Shown here: positions 5,509-22,472 of the stretch, one piece after another
Layout: each line of letters begins with the position of its first letter
Numbering within the stretch: position 1 is the stretch's first letter
Assembly (NCBI GenBank): GCA_016182605.1
Contig: JACPGE010000008.1
Span: forward strand, 99,014 to 163,013
From: Candidatus Hydrogenedentota bacterium
GTDB lineage: Bacteria > Hydrogenedentota > Hydrogenedentia > Hydrogenedentales > JAEUWI01
Reading direction: 5' to 3'
Length of the DNA: 64,000 nt
Made by a program: the position numbers and the translations under genes
The notes under the pieces: generated by a model
What the model was told of the DNA's origin: nothing
What the model saw: the letters and a program-made list of their open reading frames with translations, nothing else
The model's database searches: none

Positions 5509-6558
5509 ATGAGCAACACGCAACTCGTTATTGGCATGCCTGCGGGGTCCCTGGCCGATCCCAACCGCGGCGGCAATCTCCTCACCCTGCTGAAGAACGC
5601 CGGCTTCGTATCCAAGGGCTACGATCAGGGCGGCCCGACCAAATTTCCGTTGAACGCCGTGCTTATGGGGTGGGACGGGCGTCCGCAGGAGTTTGGATCG
5701 CAATTGGCGATTGAAGAGGTGGACATTGCCATCGGCGGCGACGACTGGATCCAGGAACGTGTCCTCGAGTTCAAGTACGAGTACCACCAGGACATCCAAT
5801 TGGAGAAGGTGCTTTCCCTGGGCCGAGGCAACGTGCGTATTGTCATCATTGTGAATCCCATTGAGGCGGGAAAGTTTTTCGACGACTACCTGCGCGATCT
5901 GCTGTCGAAGAAGCCGTTGGTGACAATGGTTTCCGAGATGCCCTACCTGGCGCTGGACTGGTTCAAGCAGCGTATCGCCAAGCTGGGCTTTGAGCAGTCG
6001 CACGGCGGCTACAGCGTGCAGAAGTTCAAGACACCGCCCAAGATCGACGCGGGCATTGTGATCTACGAGACGTGGGGCAAGACCGAGGCCAAGGTGGTGA
6101 ACGGTTCGGTGGACTTCGGCATGGAGATCACGCAGAGCGGCAGCGCCCTGCGCAACTATGGCCTCCAGATCGGGGAAGACGTGCTGCACTCCGAAACCGG
6201 GATCTGGGCGAACGCCAGCATCAGGTCCCATCCCGAAAAGTACGAGCTTGCGAAGATGTTTCTGCTGAACATCTACGGGGCGCTCTTTGCGGAGAACAAG
6301 GTGCTGCTGCTTTTCAATGCGCCGAAGAACAATGTGCAGCCCGTGCTCGACTACCTCTCCCAGAACAACCTCTTCGCGGACGAGCCCACGATGAACGAAG
6401 GGGTCAATTTCACCGAGTTCAGCGTGCAGATGGACACCAAGGATCCGAAACTCCCCATTGCGCGTGTCCGCTATGAACTGCTCAAGCTCGGCGCCACGGG
6501 CATCGAGACCATACCCCTCGATTCCTGCATTCCCAGCATCGACGCCATCGGCTTTTGA
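5509..6558 (+). CDS. HisG (ATP phosphoribosyltransferase)-like protein, divergent
   Basis: IGMPAGSLADPNRGGNLLTLLKNAGF, DIAIGGDDWIQE, LGRGNVRIVIIVNP, EITQSGSALRNYGLQIGEDVLHSETGIWAN align by eye with HisG family blocks. Confidence 0.65.
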   Translation: MSNTQLVIGMPAGSLADPNRGGNLLTLLKNAGFVSKGYDQGGPTKFPLNAVLMGWDGRPQEFGSQLAIEEVDIAIGGDDWIQERVLEFKYEYHQDIQLEKVLSLGRGNVRIVIIVNPIEAGKFFDDYLRDLLSKKPLVTMVSEMPYLALDWFKQRIAKLGFEQSHGGYSVQKFKTPPKIDAGIVIYETWGKTEAKVVNGSVDFGMEITQSGSALRNYGLQIGEDVLHSETGIWANASIRSHPEKYELAKMFLLNIYGALFAENKVLLLFNAPKNNVQPVLDYLSQNNLFADEPTMNEGVNFTEFSVQMDTKDPKLPIARVRYELLKLGATGIETIPLDSCIPSIDAIGF

Positions 6559-6674
6559 AACGGCACACGCCGGAACGCTTCCGGGAAGTGCGCTCTTGCG
6601 CATCGGCAGCCGCAGGTTTACTATGAGGGCAAGGGCCGGCACGGCCAGAATCGCCGGAGGATGGATCGAAGCCC

Positions 6675-7175
6675 ATGAAAGAACTGCTGATTCTGCGGCA
6701 CGCAAAGTCGAGTTGGGAGGAACCCGGACTCTCCGACTTTGAGCGGCCCTTGAATGAGCGCGGCAAGCGCGACGCGCCCCGGATGGGACGGCTCTTGCGC
6801 GAGCAGGATCTGCTACCGGATCTCGTGATCAGTTCAGACGCGAAACGCGCAATCAAGACGGCGCGGGCGGTCTGCAAGGAGGCAGGCTACGCGGGTCCCA
6901 TTGAAGAGCGGCACGAATTCTATCTTGCGGAAGCCGGGGTCTATATGGCCGTGTTGCACGACGCCCCGGATGCCGCCGGGCGCATTCTCATTGTGGGGCA
7001 CAATCCCGGGCTGGCCTTCCTGGTCGCCTCGCTCACGCACCAGCACGAAGAGATGCCCACGGGCGCGCTGGCCCACATCGTTTTCCCGATCCGCCATTGG
7101 CGGGAACTTCAACTTTCCACGCCCGGTATGCTTAAATGCGTGTGGCGGCCGAAGGAACTCCCCGGCGGCGCCTGA
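6675..7175 (+). CDS. sixA: SixA-like histidine phosphatase family protein
   Basis: MKELLILRHAKSSW...FERPLNERGKRDAPRMG...SSDAKRAIKTA...LIVGHNPGL. Confidence 0.8.
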   Translation: MKELLILRHAKSSWEEPGLSDFERPLNERGKRDAPRMGRLLREQDLLPDLVISSDAKRAIKTARAVCKEAGYAGPIEERHEFYLAEAGVYMAVLHDAPDAAGRILIVGHNPGLAFLVASLTHQHEEMPTGALAHIVFPIRHWRELQLSTPGMLKCVWRPKELPGGA

Positions 7176-7239
7176 GGGCGGCCCATCCGGGCAGCGCTCC
7201 CTGCGTTCCATCCACCTGTACCGAGTTGAGTAACGCTGC

Positions 7240-9210
7240 ATGCATCATCCTGAGTTCCTGACCAATGCGGTCATTCTTTTTGGCACGGGTCTCGTCGTAT
7301 CCTGGGCCTTCCGCCGCCTGAATGCGCCTGCCGTCATCGGCTATCTCATGACCGGCATGATCATCGGTCCTTCCAGTTTTCAGCTTATCGAGGAAGAGCA
7401 GGTCAACGCCTTCGCCGAAATAGGTTTGGTCTTGCTGCTCTTCACCGTGGGCCTGGAGCTTTCGCCGAAGCCGCTTCTCGCCTCGGGATTGCGCCTGGTG
7501 CTTGCGGCCGCCGGCCAGATCGGGCTCACCGCGGCCGTGGCCGGGCTGGCCAGCTTCCTGGTGGCCGGTGTGACGCCGGTCACCGCGCTCATCACCGGCA
7601 TCGCGGTCTCCCTGAGCAGCACAGCCATTGTACTGAAGTCGCTCAGCGATCGCGGCGAGATCCGCACGGTCATGGGCAATCTTTCCACCGGCTTTCTCCT
7701 CTTGCAGGATGTTTTTGTCATCATTGTGATGATGCTTATTCCCCTCTTTGCCGTGGGCAAGTCCGGCGAAGGCTGGAGTGGCCTGATCGCGCCTCTCGCC
7801 GGCTTGCTCGGCTTCGGCGCGGGCATCGCCGTGTTGCGCCCCGTGCTGCCGCGGCTGCTCCAGTCCATCGTTGCCCGAGGCGGCTCCGAACTTACAACGC
7901 TGCTTGCGGTGTGCATGGCCGCGGGCGGCGCCACCCTCGCGGACATGGCGGGCTTTCCCCTGGCGCTGGGCGCATGCGTTGCCGGGCTTATCCTGGCGGA
8001 CGCCGACATCCGCCACCAGCTCGTGGCCGACATTGCCCCGTTCCGCGATGTGTTCAACGCGCTTTTCTTCATTTCGCTCGGCATGCTGGTCAACTTCGAC
8101 CGCGTGCTCGCCATCTGGCCGTGGCTGCTGCTGGCGGTGCTGCTTACGCTGCTGCTGAAGTCGCTGCTGACCGCGGCGGTGGTCACCCTCTTCAAATGGC
8201 CCTTGCGCATCGGCATCCAGGTGGGGCTGGGCCTCTGCACCGTCAGCGAATTTGGCTATGTGCTCGCGCATGAGGCGAGCGCCTCCGGCCTCATCGACGG
8301 CGCCGTCCTGCCCGTGCTCATCCCGTACGCAGTCGGCACGATGATCATCGGGGCCATGTTCCTGCCGCTCACCGGCCCCATAGCGGACAGGATCACGCGC
8401 CGCGTCAACGCCGTTTCGATCGGCGCGGATGCCCCCCTGGAGAAGGAAGGGTACAGCAATCACGTCATTGTGGTGGGCTACGGGATCTCCGGGCAGAATC
8501 TGGCGAAGGTCTTGCGTGCCACCCGCATCCCCCACATCATTGTCGAGATGAACCCCACGCTCGCGGAGAAGGCCCGGCAGCATGGCGAGGAGGTGCTCGT
8601 GGGGGATGCCACGCGCATGCACATCCTGGAAGAGGCGGGGCTGCGCCAGGCGCGCGCGCTTATCGTGGCGATCAACGACCTGCGCGCCACCCTCCACACC
8701 ATCGCCCAGGCCCGCAATCACCGCCCGGATCTGTACATCCTGGTGCGTTCGCACAATGTGGGTGAACTCGGCACGCTCTACACCAAGGGCGCGGACGTGG
8801 TGGTATCGTCCGATTTTGAGGTGAGCATCAAGATGTTCGCGAGTGTGCTTACGGAATTGCACATTCCGGACAACATCATTCAGGCGCAGATTGCCTCCGT
8901 GCGCGCGGGCGGCTATGGCATGCTGCGCGGCATCGCCCTGGAGAGCCCGGAGCAGCTTCAGGAACTCATGGCGGTCTTCCGGACCACGGCCACGCAGACC
9001 TGGTACATCAACGAAGAGCACCACGCGAACGGGAAGAGTATCGCGGGGCTCAACCTGCGCGCGGAGACCGGTGTAAGCATCATTGCGGTCGTGCGCGATG
9101 GCGAACCCATCACCAACCCCAGCCCGCAACTCGATCTGCACATGGGCGACGTGCTGGTGATGGTGGGCACGCACGCCCAGCTCGACGCGGCGCGGAAATT
9201 TTTGGCGTAG
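7240..9210 (+). CDS. CPA2-family monovalent cation:proton antiporter with TrkA-N and TrkA-C domains (YbaL/KefB-like)
   Basis: Multi-TM N-terminus (VIGYLMTGMIIGPSSF...LLLFTVGLELSPKPL), then NHVIVVGYGISGQNLAKVLR and a C-terminal TrkA-C-like region. Confidence 0.85.
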   Translation: MHHPEFLTNAVILFGTGLVVSWAFRRLNAPAVIGYLMTGMIIGPSSFQLIEEEQVNAFAEIGLVLLLFTVGLELSPKPLLASGLRLVLAAAGQIGLTAAVAGLASFLVAGVTPVTALITGIAVSLSSTAIVLKSLSDRGEIRTVMGNLSTGFLLLQDVFVIIVMMLIPLFAVGKSGEGWSGLIAPLAGLLGFGAGIAVLRPVLPRLLQSIVARGGSELTTLLAVCMAAGGATLADMAGFPLALGACVAGLILADADIRHQLVADIAPFRDVFNALFFISLGMLVNFDRVLAIWPWLLLAVLLTLLLKSLLTAAVVTLFKWPLRIGIQVGLGLCTVSEFGYVLAHEASASGLIDGAVLPVLIPYAVGTMIIGAMFLPLTGPIADRITRRVNAVSIGADAPLEKEGYSNHVIVVGYGISGQNLAKVLRATRIPHIIVEMNPTLAEKARQHGEEVLVGDATRMHILEEAGLRQARALIVAINDLRATLHTIAQARNHRPDLYILVRSHNVGELGTLYTKGADVVVSSDFEVSIKMFASVLTELHIPDNIIQAQIASVRAGGYGMLRGIALESPEQLQELMAVFRTTATQTWYINEEHHANGKSIAGLNLRAETGVSIIAVVRDGEPITNPSPQLDLHMGDVLVMVGTHAQLDAARKFLA

Positions 9211-9245
9211 GCCTGCACAGAGAGATCGGATTGAGGTCCCCGAAC

Positions 9246-10217
9246 TCAGTCCTGATTCGGCGGCACGCGCAAAGTGGCCACCACAGCGCGGTGGTCGGAG
9301 GGGTAGGGTGTGACCACCACATCGGCACGCTCCCGAGACTCGCCCACGATTTCACACTGCACAATCTCCACGCCGGGTGAGGCGTAGACGAAATCGATGC
9401 GATCATGGCGATCAGCCGGATCGTCCTCCCGGGTGGTGGGGGTCCAGGTGCGGCCGGGCTGCGCGGCTTCATCGGGATGGAGCGCTCGGAAAACATCGAT
9501 GAGGCCCAATTCCACGACCGCCCGGGAAGCGGGATAGGCAACGGCCAGCGGCACCACGCCGGCGTCTTGCGCCTTCGCAGTCCAATCGAGGTGGGAGGGT
9601 TCGTTGAAGTCTCCTGTCAGGGCGACACGGGCGCCCGCATCGACGAGCGGCTTCATTTCCTCCAACGCTTCGCGCAATTCGGCGCCGCGCGCCACCTCGG
9701 CCGCGTCGATAAGCTCTTTTTTGGTATGCAGGAAAGGGGCGTCTTCATAGGGAATGTCTAGCAACTGGTAGGGCTGGTAAGGCGCGTGGAAGAGGTGGAC
9801 GTTGAAAAGGTAGAACGCATCGCCGGAGGGCAGCCGCAACTCGGCCCCCTGCTTGTTGGGCGTGAGACGGACGATTTCGTGGCGGCTCAGGATGGCCTTG
9901 CCCCCGCCCTGCGCGGCATAGTTCCAACCCAGAAGTGCGGCGACCTCGCGGCCCCGATCCGGCTTTACGCCATTCTTCTCGCGGCCGTCGGCCTCCTGTA
10001 TGCCGACGATATCGGCGCCCGCGGCACGGATGACGGCGGCGGTGTGCTCCAGCGCAAATTTGCCGCCTTCACCGCCGACCCAAATGTTGAAGGACATGAC
10101 CCGCACGGTTCCGTCCTTCACCGGGCCGTCCTCCGCAGTGGTCTTGCAGCCGGCCAGCGTTCCAAGTACGGTCATTACGGCCGCCGCAATGCCAAGCAAC
10201 CTCGAGACGTTTCGCAT
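9246..10217 (-). CDS. Endonuclease/exonuclease/phosphatase family lipoprotein
   Basis: Lipobox LAGC; VRVMSFNIWVGG, VGIQEADG, LTGDFNEPSHLDW, DRIDFVYA, PSDHRAVVATL. Confidence 0.85.
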   Translation of the reverse strand: MRNVSRLLGIAAAVMTVLGTLAGCKTTAEDGPVKDGTVRVMSFNIWVGGEGGKFALEHTAAVIRAAGADIVGIQEADGREKNGVKPDRGREVAALLGWNYAAQGGGKAILSRHEIVRLTPNKQGAELRLPSGDAFYLFNVHLFHAPYQPYQLLDIPYEDAPFLHTKKELIDAAEVARGAELREALEEMKPLVDAGARVALTGDFNEPSHLDWTAKAQDAGVVPLAVAYPASRAVVELGLIDVFRALHPDEAAQPGRTWTPTTREDDPADRHDRIDFVYASPGVEIVQCEIVGESRERADVVVTPYPSDHRAVVATLRVPPNQD

Positions 10218-10507
10218 CGTAATCTCCAGTTTCCCTATTGGGGGTGCGGTCCCAGGCCCCCCCTGGGATCGCCGTTTGTACTCGCCCTTTCCCTCATTCC
10301 TTCACTCCGCCCCAACAAGCACAACGCCCGGCGACGCCCCCTTGTCATCTCGTACGCAGTGAGAGATCTCCTCCTCCTCCTCTCCCAGATGCGATGGCGT
10401 TCCGATTGGCACAAGTGCTTCGGGCGGCATCAGGTTCGGACGCGGCGCACAAGACGATCTACCTTTGTGATGGGATACAGGCGTGCACTTCGACGTGGAA
10501 TGCCTAC

Positions 10508-10568
10508 GCTCGGCGAGCGAAGGCCTACTTTGGCAGCGAGCCGGAAAGTAGCACGCTGCTCGCCGAGC
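10508..10568. ncRNA. Candidate structured element (nested hairpin) in a non-coding gap
   Basis: Outer 11-bp arms GCTCGGCGAGC (10508-10518)/GCTCGCCGAGC (10558-10568); inner arms CTACTTT (10525-10531)/AAAGTAG (10545-10551); loop holds GGC/GCC. Confidence 0.4.
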
Positions 10569-10755
10569 GGCGTGATTGGGCTAAGACGGCAAAAACCAAG
10601 CACCCTTCGTTACTGTCCGCTATTTTCCTTACTGTCCGCCTGAGCCACTCGCCTTCCTGCGGTTTGCCCACGGGTTCAACGTTGAAGTGCAAGACCTATC
10701 CCTGTTTCGCCTGCGCCGCCTGAGAAACCCCAATCTCCCGTTTCGCGATTTCAGA

Positions 10756-12441
10756 TCAAAGCCCGATCAGCGCAATCTCACCCCAGTAGGCGGCTTCGCA
10801 GAACCAGCCGGTGGGCGCGTTCAGAATTTCGGCCTTTATGGTCTGGCCGGCATAGGGGGCGAGATCGACTTCGACGGTCAGCCAGCCTTCTTGAATGGTC
10901 TTCACGCTGACTTCTTTGTTGAGCACTTCTTCGCCGTTGATCTTTACGACGAGTTGCCAGTCGCCGCCGTCGTGGTGGCTGACGGTGAGGCGCAGCTTGC
11001 CTTTGGAGTTCACGGGAATGGCCCCCTCGCGCCAGATCACACAGGGCGTTGCGCCATCATCGGGGTGGGTGACGAGAACCCGTTCGCGATCCCGGTAAAA
11101 GGCGCGGATGCCGGGGTCCATCTCCAGGCCGCAATCTTCGATCTGCCAGCCCGGCGCGAACTCGGCGATCAACTTGTCCATGTCCGGGCGTCCATTGGAG
11201 AGTTCCGCAGGGCGGATGTGCTCTGCAACTTCGGCTTCCGAGTAGGTGCTGTTCGCGACGGGGCCGGGGCTCCAGCTTTGTTCGAGGGCAAACGGCTTCG
11301 GTTTCTCCACCGGGATCACGAGGATTTCTTTGCCGCCTTCCTCCACGATCTTGCCGCCGGCGCGGACGATGGCGTCGCGCGCGAGCTTTTCGCAGATCGC
11401 GATCAAACCGGTGAAGGAATATTCCGTGTGGGAAAAGACGGTCTCCGGTTTCAGGCCCGACGTGAATTTTTCGGGAATGTTCTTTGGATCGAGGGAGGTG
11501 AAGAGAATGCCGGCGGCACTGGAAGGGTTGCAGTCGGAGTCCTGGCCGCAACGTGTGGCGATCGCCATGGTCTTGTCCGGATCGCGATCGCCGTAGAGCA
11601 ACCCCATGACAATATAGGCGCCGTTGATCTTGGCGTCGATGTTGAAGCTTTTCTTCTTCTCGCCGCAGGAGGCCTTACGGTAGTCGAGGTTCTCGTTGTA
11701 CTTCTCCTCGATAAGCTTCCACGCGGCTTCCCAGTCCGACGGGTGGGCCTTCCACCACGCGATGACATCGCGGATGCAGGCCGCGTACTGACTGTCCGCG
11801 GGAATACACTCCAGCCCGGCAAGCACAATCTTTTCCGGATCGCTCTCGAAGAAGGCCGCCGAATACATGCCGCCCACGAACTGACCGCCGTAGAGACCAT
11901 CGCCATAGTTCATGATGCGGCCAAAGGTCTCGCCAAGCGCGATCGGCAGATTGGGCATGCCCGGCGCGATGAGGCCGGCGTAGTCCGCTTCGATCTGATA
12001 GTCGATATCGTCCGCGTGAGTGTTGAATTGCGGGTGGCCGGAGTCGGGCGGGGCGATGCCCTTGCGCAGGTTCTCGCGCCCGGTGGCGTTGGCGTGCCAA
12101 AGCGGGTAGAGGCTCCGGGCGAAATCGATGCCTGCCTGCTTCTGGGAGACCTCCCAGCCGTAGTTTTCGAGAGTCTTGAGGAAGGTCATCTCCACATAGA
12201 GATCGTCTTGCCAGAATTGATTGACGAATCCGGGCTTCCAGACCGGCAGATCGCTCTCCGGCACGACGCGGCCATTGAACTGAAACTCGGTGGGCGCGCC
12301 AAAGCCGACCCCGGCCATCTGCCCGATCCAGCCCGCCTTCATGCGGCTGAGGTATTCGTCCACCGGCAAGCGGAGGACATTTTCTTGTGCGGCGGCGGCG
12401 CCACAGAGTGCGATGGACAGAGAAAGTACAAACTGCTTCAT
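10756..12441 (-). CDS. Secreted ADP-ribosylglycohydrolase family protein
   Basis: Signal peptide MKQFVLSLSIALCGAAAA; GDGLYGGQFVGGMYSAAF, MGLLYGDRDPDKTMAIATRCGQDSDCNPSSAAGIL. Confidence 0.8.
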   Translation of the reverse strand: MKQFVLSLSIALCGAAAAQENVLRLPVDEYLSRMKAGWIGQMAGVGFGAPTEFQFNGRVVPESDLPVWKPGFVNQFWQDDLYVEMTFLKTLENYGWEVSQKQAGIDFARSLYPLWHANATGRENLRKGIAPPDSGHPQFNTHADDIDYQIEADYAGLIAPGMPNLPIALGETFGRIMNYGDGLYGGQFVGGMYSAAFFESDPEKIVLAGLECIPADSQYAACIRDVIAWWKAHPSDWEAAWKLIEEKYNENLDYRKASCGEKKKSFNIDAKINGAYIVMGLLYGDRDPDKTMAIATRCGQDSDCNPSSAAGILFTSLDPKNIPEKFTSGLKPETVFSHTEYSFTGLIAICEKLARDAIVRAGGKIVEEGGKEILVIPVEKPKPFALEQSWSPGPVANSTYSEAEVAEHIRPAELSNGRPDMDKLIAEFAPGWQIEDCGLEMDPGIRAFYRDRERVLVTHPDDGATPCVIWREGAIPVNSKGKLRLTVSHHDGGDWQLVVKINGEEVLNKEVSVKTIQEGWLTVEVDLAPYAGQTIKAEILNAPTGWFCEAAYWGEIALIGL

Positions 12442-19966: not shown

Positions 19967-20045
19967 GGCCGGCCTTTCGCGCGTGTTCACTGGACAAGCA
20001 GTACTACAGTAGTACCCCTGTCATGATACGCGCCACAGCCGCTGC

Positions 20046-20142
20046 CGTCAATCTCCATCCGCCAACGTATCCGCCCGCGCCCCGCCCTCAGATCTCCAGC
20101 GTGGATATCGCGATCCCGCCGCCGAAGCACACGGTCACGTCC
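20046..20142 (-). repeat. Direct repeat copy A: orphan 3' end of surE (17 codons plus stop plus 3' flank)
   Basis: Minus strand encodes DVTVCFGGGIAISTLEI*, as does 22377-22472; a few substitutions and one indel over ~97 bp. Confidence 0.9.
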
Positions 20143-20537
20143 CACACCGCATTGACGGGGCCCAGCAATTTGATTGAGTGGGTCGAATGAACGAAATAAT
20201 CTCCTGGCGCAACATTCCGGGATCATGATCTCACCTTAAAATGATCGTCCTGAAAGAGCCAAACAAATCGCAGTTCCCAAGTGCAGTGCGGGGAGTAAAC
20301 GGATTTGGAGCCTGTCGCACCACTTCAGGGCTGAATCTCTGGCTGTCCAGGCCCCTGAACGGTAATCCGGGGCTATTATATTGACCACTTGGGGCCACGT
20401 AATAGAATCGACCCACCGGAGCGCGGAATTCATCCGTTTGACGAATATAGTTTTGGATACGCGAGGCATGTTCATGGTCCACGACAAGTGATTCGCCAGA
20501 GTATGAGAGAGGGCGGCCGTTCTTCCCCGCACACTTT

Positions 20538-22151
20538 TCAGTCTACCTGCAGTCCGCACACATCCAGCCACTGTCTATTCCAGGCAAAACGCCACCTTCC
20601 AATAGCCTGTACTTTAGAATTCATAATATCGGGCGACTGAATCCGGCCGGCAACCTGATATCGTAGCGTACATATCAAATCACAACCCAGCCCAAATCCT
20701 GCGAGTCGCCGTCGACGGTAGTCTCGTCTGAACAAATTCAATTGAACGAAACCTATAGGCAAGTAGGCTGACAGATGCCAACGATTCTGTTTCCTCGCAC
20801 ACTTTCTCGCAACGCGTACAATGTAGCTGCGGTACATTCGAATCGTTTCCATGACATCAGCGTCGTTCAGGTCATCGATGACCAAGTCGGCCCTGATTAC
20901 AGAATACCAAGAGTTTCTGTGGATCGACACATTTCTGCAGTTTACTTTGGGAAACCCAAAGTCATCGTGCAAACGTTGCATGGTCACTGGCCAATGAATC
21001 TGAAAACTAGTTAGTAAAGTGTCGATTCGACCAAGGAAATGAGGTAATGAAAGCAAGGGAAAATAGTATACGCAATTATTCTCCAGAACCCCCAAGTACC
21101 GGGATATATCATCAATATGCGCTTCCCGCAACTCTCTTAACCGTTGCCCGTCAAAACCGGCCCATCCACGCAGAGCCTTTCGACTATAGAGAGAAAAAAA
21201 ATAGCGATCAAATCCTGGAGCAAAGTACTCCGCAAGTATTCCTGATTGTATCGTCGACCATTGTATCTTCGCGTAGTGCCGTGAATTGGGACGAGCGAAA
21301 ACGACCAACTGGCGTGTGTTCCCTATCTCCTGTTCCAGACACCCTTCAATTGTCCACCACGGGGACTTGGTTTCTTCTTGCAGTTCTTCCACCAGCAATT
21401 GATGTGGACGGATATAGCCGCGATCTTGCGAGACCAACAGGAATGCTTTCATAGCCACAGCAAGGCCGTTGCATGCATCCAGTAGGTCGTCGAATAAGCG
21501 CACTACAGCCCGAACACCGAGAGTCTCCTGTCGTTGACCCCTATCGCGATAACATATTTCATCCTTGCGAAACGTGAATCCGCCGTGCGCTATTCCATTT
21601 CGCACTATGTGTCGGTAGGACCGAGCAAAGCACCTGGTCGCGTCACGGTTGAGTTCTTGTACAACGGACCAAGTGTCAAGCCCTTCGGTCCCCTTGCCCC
21701 GATCACATCGAGAAAACCAGGCAACAGGTCGAGTAAGTGGTGTTAACACCCCTTCGATAAGACGCAGATAGGCAGGATGAATCTTGTCGTCTATGAATCG
21801 AATAGTATCGAACTCGTCACCGATGCCGAATAGTTTATCGTGCCAATCCTGAGAATTAATCTCCCGAAGGAACAAGAAAGCATTGTTGATTTCATCGCTG
21901 AATTGTTCAAGACACTCTCGTAGCCTTACTGTGTCAGTCTCATCTCGATGTTGAAGCCACAATGCAAACGCATCATATACTTCGAGATCAAAAAACTTTT
22001 CTGGGCGTTTGTCCAAATAGTGGCGGAGAGAAAGGCAATGCGATCCAAGTGCGTCGAGGATTAACGGAAATGCCGTAGCAATTCGGACTTTATCACGAGA
22101 ATCGAGTTCCCGTGTTAACGCATTGCACAATCGATTATGAAGTGGGTGCAT
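20538..22151 (-). CDS. Uncharacterised 537-aa protein with a HEPN-like RNGIAH (R-x4-H) motif
   Basis: ORF with RSYRHIVRNGIAHGGFTF; RN-x3-H is the HEPN ribonuclease signature form. No other family recognised. Confidence 0.6.
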   Translation of the reverse strand: MHPLHNRLCNALTRELDSRDKVRIATAFPLILDALGSHCLSLRHYLDKRPEKFFDLEVYDAFALWLQHRDETDTVRLRECLEQFSDEINNAFLFLREINSQDWHDKLFGIGDEFDTIRFIDDKIHPAYLRLIEGVLTPLTRPVAWFSRCDRGKGTEGLDTWSVVQELNRDATRCFARSYRHIVRNGIAHGGFTFRKDEICYRDRGQRQETLGVRAVVRLFDDLLDACNGLAVAMKAFLLVSQDRGYIRPHQLLVEELQEETKSPWWTIEGCLEQEIGNTRQLVVFARPNSRHYAKIQWSTIQSGILAEYFAPGFDRYFFSLYSRKALRGWAGFDGQRLRELREAHIDDISRYLGVLENNCVYYFPLLSLPHFLGRIDTLLTSFQIHWPVTMQRLHDDFGFPKVNCRNVSIHRNSWYSVIRADLVIDDLNDADVMETIRMYRSYIVRVARKCARKQNRWHLSAYLPIGFVQLNLFRRDYRRRRLAGFGLGCDLICTLRYQVAGRIQSPDIMNSKVQAIGRWRFAWNRQWLDVCGLQVD

Positions 22152-22156
22152 TAAAT

Positions 22157-22168
22157 ATACTTAAGTAT
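22157..22168. promoter_or_regulatory. 12-bp perfect palindrome ATACTTAAGTAT just upstream of the HEPN-like ORF start
   Basis: Exact palindrome 5 bp upstream of the start codon (22149-22151 on the minus strand). Confidence 0.45.
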
Positions 22169-22376
22169 GTTAAAGGGAAAGAGTAATCGAGCCGCACTTG
22201 TTAGAACGCGGCCTAAACGAACGTCAAGAGTAAGGCGACGCGCCAGCGCTCTTTTACAGGATTCAAGACGGGTATGCACTCCGACAAGTAATTTCTTAGG
22301 AGTTTCGGGGGCATTGGTGGAGAGCGAAAAAATACTACTGTAACGAGAGTGTTATTTTACGCGCCGGGGATCGTTT

Positions 22377-22472
22377 CGTCAATCCCATACGCCAACGAAT
22401 CCGCCCGCGCCCCGCGCTCAGATCTCCAGCGTGGAGATCGCGATCCCGCCGCCGAAGCACACCGTCACGTCC
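22377..22472 (-). repeat. Direct repeat copy B: 3' end of intact surE plus 3' flank
   Basis: Pairs with 20046-20142; includes the surE stop codon at 22418-22420. Confidence 0.9.

What the first reader, a model, noticed from the sequence alone, without database searches (positions are those of the whole stretch)
20538..22151. Solo 537-aa ORF with a HEPN-type RNGIAH motif: candidate stand-alone defence or toxin RNase
The cargo ORF of the surE-flanked insert contains RSYRHIVRNGIAHGG, matching R-[N/D/H]-x3-H of HEPN ribonucleases. No other family was recognisable. It lies in a low-GC insert, in the same orientation as surE, with a perfect 12-bp palindrome just upstream of its start. HEPN proteins on small islands are often antiviral or toxin RNases (established for the superfamily); the function here is inference.
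Basis: partly seen in the sequence, partly recalled or inferred. Interest (0 to 1): 0.72.

Follow-up and report, generated by a model that had tools for sequence, protein, structure and literature searches.

The report
Orphan HEPN-type RNase on mobile insert
A foreign, inserted bacterial gene encodes a previously unclassified protein whose most conserved patch looks like the active site of HEPN RNA-cutting enzymes; relatives in distant bacteria also sit in inserts or beside defence-type genes, so it is probably a self-contained RNA-cutting defence or toxin effector.

Summary
The ORF is real: 537 aa on the MINUS strand (22151..20538), on a 2.24-kb GC-poor insert bounded by two 94%-identical 88-bp copies of the surE 3' end. 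The motif alone is weak evidence (24% of shuffles contain R[NDH]x3H); its conservation is strong evidence. I found six homologues: 45% and 40% identity, three at about 40% from one group, and one at 20% on an IMG/VR contig. VRNGIAHGG is the longest invariant block in the first three sequences; R184, N185, A188, H189 and G190 are invariant in all seven. AlphaFold of residues 50-262 (pLDDT 76.5, pTM 0.79) puts the motif at the end of a helix, after a long helix with invariant E133 and before a beta-hairpin and a long helix: the published HEPN topology, with a hairpin as in Csx1. No HEPN profile or fold search gives a significant hit, so membership rests on motif, topology and conservation. The gene is rare, patchy, under purifying selection (dN/dS about 0.2) and without a constant partner; neighbours include an AAA ATPase, HNH-TPR-PIN, HicB and WD40-Roc genes. 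One copy lies in an insert that two sister genomes lack. Best reading: new HEPN-type family, probably a single-gene RNase effector. Function untested.

The parts
20538..22151 (-). 537-aa ORF (P0001), candidate stand-alone HEPN-type RNase effector
   Evidence: six homologues; no Pfam, PADLOC or PDB family, one sub-threshold NCBIfam hit (E 0.15)
21432..21815 (-). predicted HEPN core (residues 113-240): long helix with H125/P126/R130/E133, motif helix, beta-hairpin, long helix
   Evidence: AlphaFold of residues 50-262, pLDDT 76.5, pTM 0.79
21585..21602 (-). R184-N-G-I-A-H189 motif, predicted active site
   Evidence: longest invariant block (VRNGIAHGG) in three sequences; R, N, A, H, G invariant in seven
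20541..21365 (-). conserved C-terminal region of unknown fold (residues 263-537); candidate sensor or regulatory domain
   Evidence: invariant D315 R316 E357 H411 R412 D477 R479 R481; dN/dS about 0.19-0.24 in the three related homologues; no family match
20143..22384 (.). 2.24-kb low-GC single-cargo insert, single copy in the genome
22385..22472 (-). 88-bp repeat copy at the intact surE 3' end
   Evidence: the only full matches in the genome are this and the remnant
20055..20142 (-). 88-bp repeat copy: orphan surE 3' remnant on the far side of the insert
   Evidence: 94% identity
22418..23113 (-). surE (231 aa), left intact by the insertion
22354..22382 (-). promoter-like TTGACG-17-TAAAAT upstream of the HEPN ORF; a matching element TTGACG-17-TATCAT lies beyond the other repeat at 20051-20023
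   Evidence: consensus match only (4 found, 2.8 expected), but hexamers are kept while the spacer has diverged
22157..22168 (.). perfect 12-bp palindrome ATACTTAAGTAT 5 bp before the start codon
   Evidence: not conserved in homologues

Best explanation
The ORF belongs to a new, rare family of about 540-aa single-gene effectors spread as cargo of small chromosomal inserts. Shown by sequence: the family exists, related copies are under purifying selection, the gene is foreign and inserted here, and it is built around an invariant R-N-x-x-A-H-G patch. Inferred from the model and the literature: residues 113-240 form a HEPN-type bundle (E133 in helix 2, RNGIAH at the end of helix 3, a Csx1-like beta-hairpin, then helix 4), and R184, N185 and H189 form a metal-independent RNase active site. 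Inferred more weakly: the conserved C-terminal half keeps the nuclease silent and senses an infection or stress cue; on activation the enzyme cleaves cellular RNA and stops growth, protecting the population from phage or stabilising the insert.
For: Homologues at 45, 40 and 20% identity and three at about 40% keep R184, N185, A188, H189 and G190. The model of residues 50-262 has pLDDT 76.5 and pTM 0.79, with helix 113-150, motif helix ending at residue 188, hairpin and helix 213-240. This matches the HEPN description: Rx4-6H at the end of helix 3 with a polar residue after R, a conserved acidic residue in helix 2, inserts between helices 2 and 3, and a beta-hairpin after the motif in Csx1 (PMC3710099). 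Csx1 (6qzt), HepT (7ae9) and the AF0298 HEPN (2hsb) rank 6, 11 and 25 in the PDB fold search, none significantly. dN/dS is about 0.2 in both halves. The gene is foreign and inserted here. In G773 an insert of about 5.1 kb with an AAA ATPase plus this gene splits oppD-oppF, which abut in two sister genomes. Neighbours elsewhere: HNH-TPR-PIN 2-kaa proteins and HicB-like ORFs, a WD40-Roc protein with a C-terminal region like PADLOC effectors, and an IMG/VR contig. Occurrence is 2 of about 68 genomes of the order. No partner is shared by all loci.
Against: No HEPN family profile matched any of seven members, and no PDB fold hit is below E = 0.09. The full-length model is poor (pLDDT 46), so the C-terminal role is conjecture. 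The Ex3[KR] form of the acidic motif is not present (E133 has no basic residue at +4 in the window protein). One homologue (L005, after ruvB) has no defence-type neighbour. Defence association is by neighbourhood only.
Confidence: 0.6

Rival explanations
1. Toxin of a toxin-antitoxin or addiction module: the HEPN RNase is neutralised by a separate antitoxin and serves to keep the insert in the genome.
For: HEPN toxins such as HepT work this way (PMC7641770). HicB-like antitoxin ORFs sit next to the homologue in two genomes. In L011 a second ORF with a YRSQALHGG motif is directly adjacent.
Against: No partner ORF is conserved across the loci, and in the window the insert has no second convincing gene. 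At about 540 aa with a conserved C-terminal half, it is much larger than typical TA toxins (own knowledge).
Confidence: 0.17
2. A HEPN-fold or other helical RNA-binding or regulatory protein without nuclease activity.
For: No significant HEPN match by profile or fold. Many other residues are invariant, including H411/R412 and D477/R479/R481. Some HEPN domains are predicted inactive (PMC3710099).
Against: R, N and H of the motif are all retained down to 20% identity, whereas HEPN domains predicted inactive lack the conserved charged and polar residues (PMC3710099).
Confidence: 0.15
3. Not HEPN at all: the motif is a coincidence inside an unrelated enzyme whose active site lies in the C-terminal half.
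For: R[NDH]x3H occurs in 24% of shuffled versions of the protein. The C-terminal half is conserved about as well as the N-terminal half.
Against: The motif block is the best conserved in the family and its predicted structural position is the one HEPN requires.
Confidence: 0.08

Closest known systems
Csx1 / Csm6 HEPN ribonucleases of type III CRISPR systems
   Same: Rx4H-type motif with, in Csx1, a beta-hairpin immediately after it (PMC3710099; model here); 6qzt is the best HEPN entry in the fold search, though at E 0.87
   Different: No CARF match and no cas gene seen among the ORFs read at the loci; HEPN-type part first, unknown region after; no significant sequence or fold match
HepT (HEPN-MNT toxin-antitoxin)
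   Same: HEPN-type motif, candidate RNase toxin
   Different: HepT is small and paired with an MNT nucleotidyltransferase; here there is no MNT partner and the protein is about 540 aa
Abortive-infection HEPN proteins (Abi_C, AbiU2, ApeA)
   Same: Proteins with HEPN motifs in defence contexts (own knowledge of the families)
   Different: None of their Pfam or PADLOC models matches

Membership tests
HEPN superfamily | Conserved Rx4-6H motif with a polar residue after R | tested here: met
   R184-N185-x3-H189 invariant in seven members down to 20% identity
[quoted passage not shown]
HEPN superfamily | Conserved acidic residue in helix 2 (often Ex3[KR]; present in many, not all, families) | tested here: inconclusive
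   E133 in the long helix is invariant, but the +4 basic residue is missing
HEPN superfamily | Statistically supported profile or fold similarity to a known HEPN family | tested here: not met
   No HEPN match in Pfam, PADLOC, NCBIfam or PDB sequences; best HEPN fold hit E 0.87; profile-profile comparison with HEPN families was not run
HEPN superfamily | Metal-independent RNase activity that needs R and H | not testable with these tools
   needs an experiment
Csx1/Csm6 | CARF sensor domain and type III CRISPR locus | tested here: not met
   No CARF-family match to any member; no cas gene seen among ORFs read at the loci; the C-terminal fold itself is unknown
Two-gene toxin-antitoxin module | Conserved adjacent antitoxin gene | tested here: not met
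   Neighbours differ between loci
Known anti-phage system in PADLOC-DB 2.0.0 | Match to a system protein | tested here: not met
   no match for the window protein, L005, L008 or L011 homologues

The most novel reading that the evidence does not exclude
A one-gene immune system: the conserved C-terminal domain is a new type of infection sensor that releases its own HEPN RNase, the whole unit moving between phyla as minimal cargo inserted at gene 3' ends or inside operons.
Probability: 0.3. Interest if true: 0.6.

Novelty: new member of a known kind. Interest (0 to 1): 0.42.

Why it matters
If right, it adds an undetected family to the HEPN ribonucleases, with a conserved C-terminal region of unknown fold that could be a new sensor. 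It also gives a concrete, testable single-gene defence candidate in little-studied bacteria. The method point is general: the motif alone was near chance level, and only the distant homologues made the case.

Tried and rejected
Family scans of the protein and six homologues against Pfam, PADLOC, NCBIfam, PHROGs and PDB sequences gave nothing usable. No relatives in phage or plasmid records; most IMG/VR scans were empty, and one found the contig holding the 20% homologue. The full-length AlphaFold model was too poor to use. The viral fold search gave no significant match. I looked for Abi_C and ApeA sequences to build a profile-profile test; five Abi_C hits and no ApeA hits made it not worth running. 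L015 (E 3.5e-4) was rejected: the short match lies in an ORF of about 605 aa that does not resemble the family otherwise. The palindrome as a shared operator was rejected. No Rfam match in the region. Tail repeats at recG (L003) and ruvB (L005) were looked for and not found. No strong tail repeat was found downstream of surE in seven relatives. The papers search for surE as an integration site gave nothing relevant.

Full report
Observation. The given coordinates hold a 537-aa ORF on the minus strand, 22151..20538, not on the plus strand. The motif RSYRHIVRNGIAHGG is residues 177-191. The ORF lies in a GC-poor stretch (about 0.48 against 0.60-0.66 nearby) and its third-position GC is 0.47 against 0.87 for surE and 0.78 for the next gene. 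An 88-bp sequence spanning the last 55 bp of surE and 33 bp downstream occurs at 22385-22472 and, 94% identical, at 20055-20142; no other full copy exists in the 6.76-Mb genome, and the 2.24-kb segment between them is single-copy. So surE is intact and an orphan copy of its 3' end marks the far side of the insert.

How the insert may have arrived. The two differences inside the surE coding part of the repeat fall at third codon positions by my reading of the coordinates, which suggests (weakly, with two sites) that the two tails come from functional surE genes of related lineages. Similarity continues weakly past the 88 bp and includes a promoter-like pair at matching places: TTGACG-17-TAAAAT at 22382-22354 and TTGACG-17-TATCAT at 20051-20023, with the hexamers kept and the spacer diverged. 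I infer that the duplication carries the intergenic promoter, leaving one copy before the HEPN ORF and one before the native downstream gene. I saw no integrase gene in the insert, and the mechanism is not resolved.

Is the motif more than chance? Alone, no: 24% of shuffles of this protein contain R[NDH]x3H, and about 5.5 Rx4-6H matches are expected against 7 seen. The homologues decide it. I found L004 (a Hydrogenedentota MAG, 45%), L005 (JABMRV010000077.1, 40%), L008, L013 and L014 (three related small genomes, about 40%) and L009/L040 (20%). In the first three-way alignment VRNGIAHGG is the longest invariant block; with all seven sequences the invariant residues at the motif are R184, N185, A188, H189 and G190. 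Other invariant residues include H125, P126, R130, E133, D221 and C227 in the same region, and D315, R316, E357, H411, R412, D477, R479 and R481 in the C-terminal half.

Structure. The full-length AlphaFold model with three sequences is poor (pLDDT 46). The segment 50-262 with four sequences is usable (pLDDT 76.5, pTM 0.79): helix 113-150 with E133, a variable linker, a helix ending at residue 188 with the motif at its end, a beta-hairpin, and helix 213-240. [quoted passage not shown] The agreement is good. Foldseek against the PDB gave no significant match; Csx1 (E 0.87), HepT (2.3) and AF0298 HEPN (3.4) are among the top 25 of a weak list. I therefore call it HEPN-type with good but not conclusive support.

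Distribution and neighbourhood. Two of about 68 genomes of the order have it, including the window's own, and homologues occur in other lineages, so it is rare and patchy. Neighbours: after surE here; after recG and before a WD40-Roc ORF in L003, whose last part matches PADLOC effector and PDC-S60 models; after ruvB with no defence gene in L005; beside HicB-like ORFs and a 2-kaa HNH-TPR-PIN protein in L010 and L048, with a TnpB-like ORF nearby in L010; in L047 with an AAA ATPase in an insert of about 5.1 kb between oppD and oppF. In two sister genomes (L050, L052) oppD and oppF abut, which shows the empty site. The 20% homologue lies on an IMG/VR contig with ThiF, JAB and ubiquitin-like ORFs, a protein kinase and a neighbouring ORF that also carries a HEPN-like YRSQALHGG. 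The three related copies show dN/dS about 0.2 in both halves: the protein is functional and its C-terminal half matters too.

Mechanism. Shown: a conserved, selected, mobile gene with an invariant R-N-x-x-A-H-G patch. Inferred: HEPN-type, metal-independent RNA cleavage by R184/N185/H189. Inferred more weakly: because no partner gene is constant, regulation is probably internal, through the conserved C-terminal half, with activation by infection or stress and growth arrest as outcome. A two-gene toxin-antitoxin reading is possible but no antitoxin is conserved.

Verdict. Novelty: a new family within a known kind of ribonuclease, of moderate interest, with an unknown C-terminal region as the most interesting part.

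Noticed in passing
L011:10308-11450 (minus) next to L011:8533-10293: A 380-aa ORF directly upstream of the 20% homologue carries YRSQALHGG, another HEPN-like motif; the two may form a two-protein module. No Pfam or PADLOC match.
   Followed up: partly
L047 about 6293-11402 versus L050 and L052: The oppD-oppF junction carries an insert of about 5.1 kb with an AAA ATPase and the HEPN-type gene in one genome and is empty in two sisters; a third (L053) has a different gap of about 1 kb, so it may be an insertion hotspot.
   Followed up: partly
L003:5610-9365: WD40-Roc protein of 1251 aa with a C-terminal region that matches PADLOC effector and PDC-S60 models, next to the recG-linked homologue; looks like a bacterial NLR-like sensor protein.
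   Followed up: partly
L010:1102-7128 and L048:2414-8476: Proteins of about 2,010 aa with HNH, PIN-TPR-GreABC and permuted GreAB-C regions (Pfam scan of the L010 copy) beside the HEPN-type gene in two genomes.
   Followed up: partly
window 20143-20537: 395 bp of the insert downstream of the ORF with only short ORFs (83 and 111 aa) and no family match; origin unknown.
   Followed up: partly
window 22354-22382 and 20023-20051: Promoter-like pairs at matching places beyond both surE-tail repeats, hexamers kept and spacer diverged.
   Followed up: partly
L008:590-1414 and L048:8836-9663: HicB-like ORFs of 274-275 aa, longer than usual HicB, next to the HEPN-type gene.
   Followed up: no
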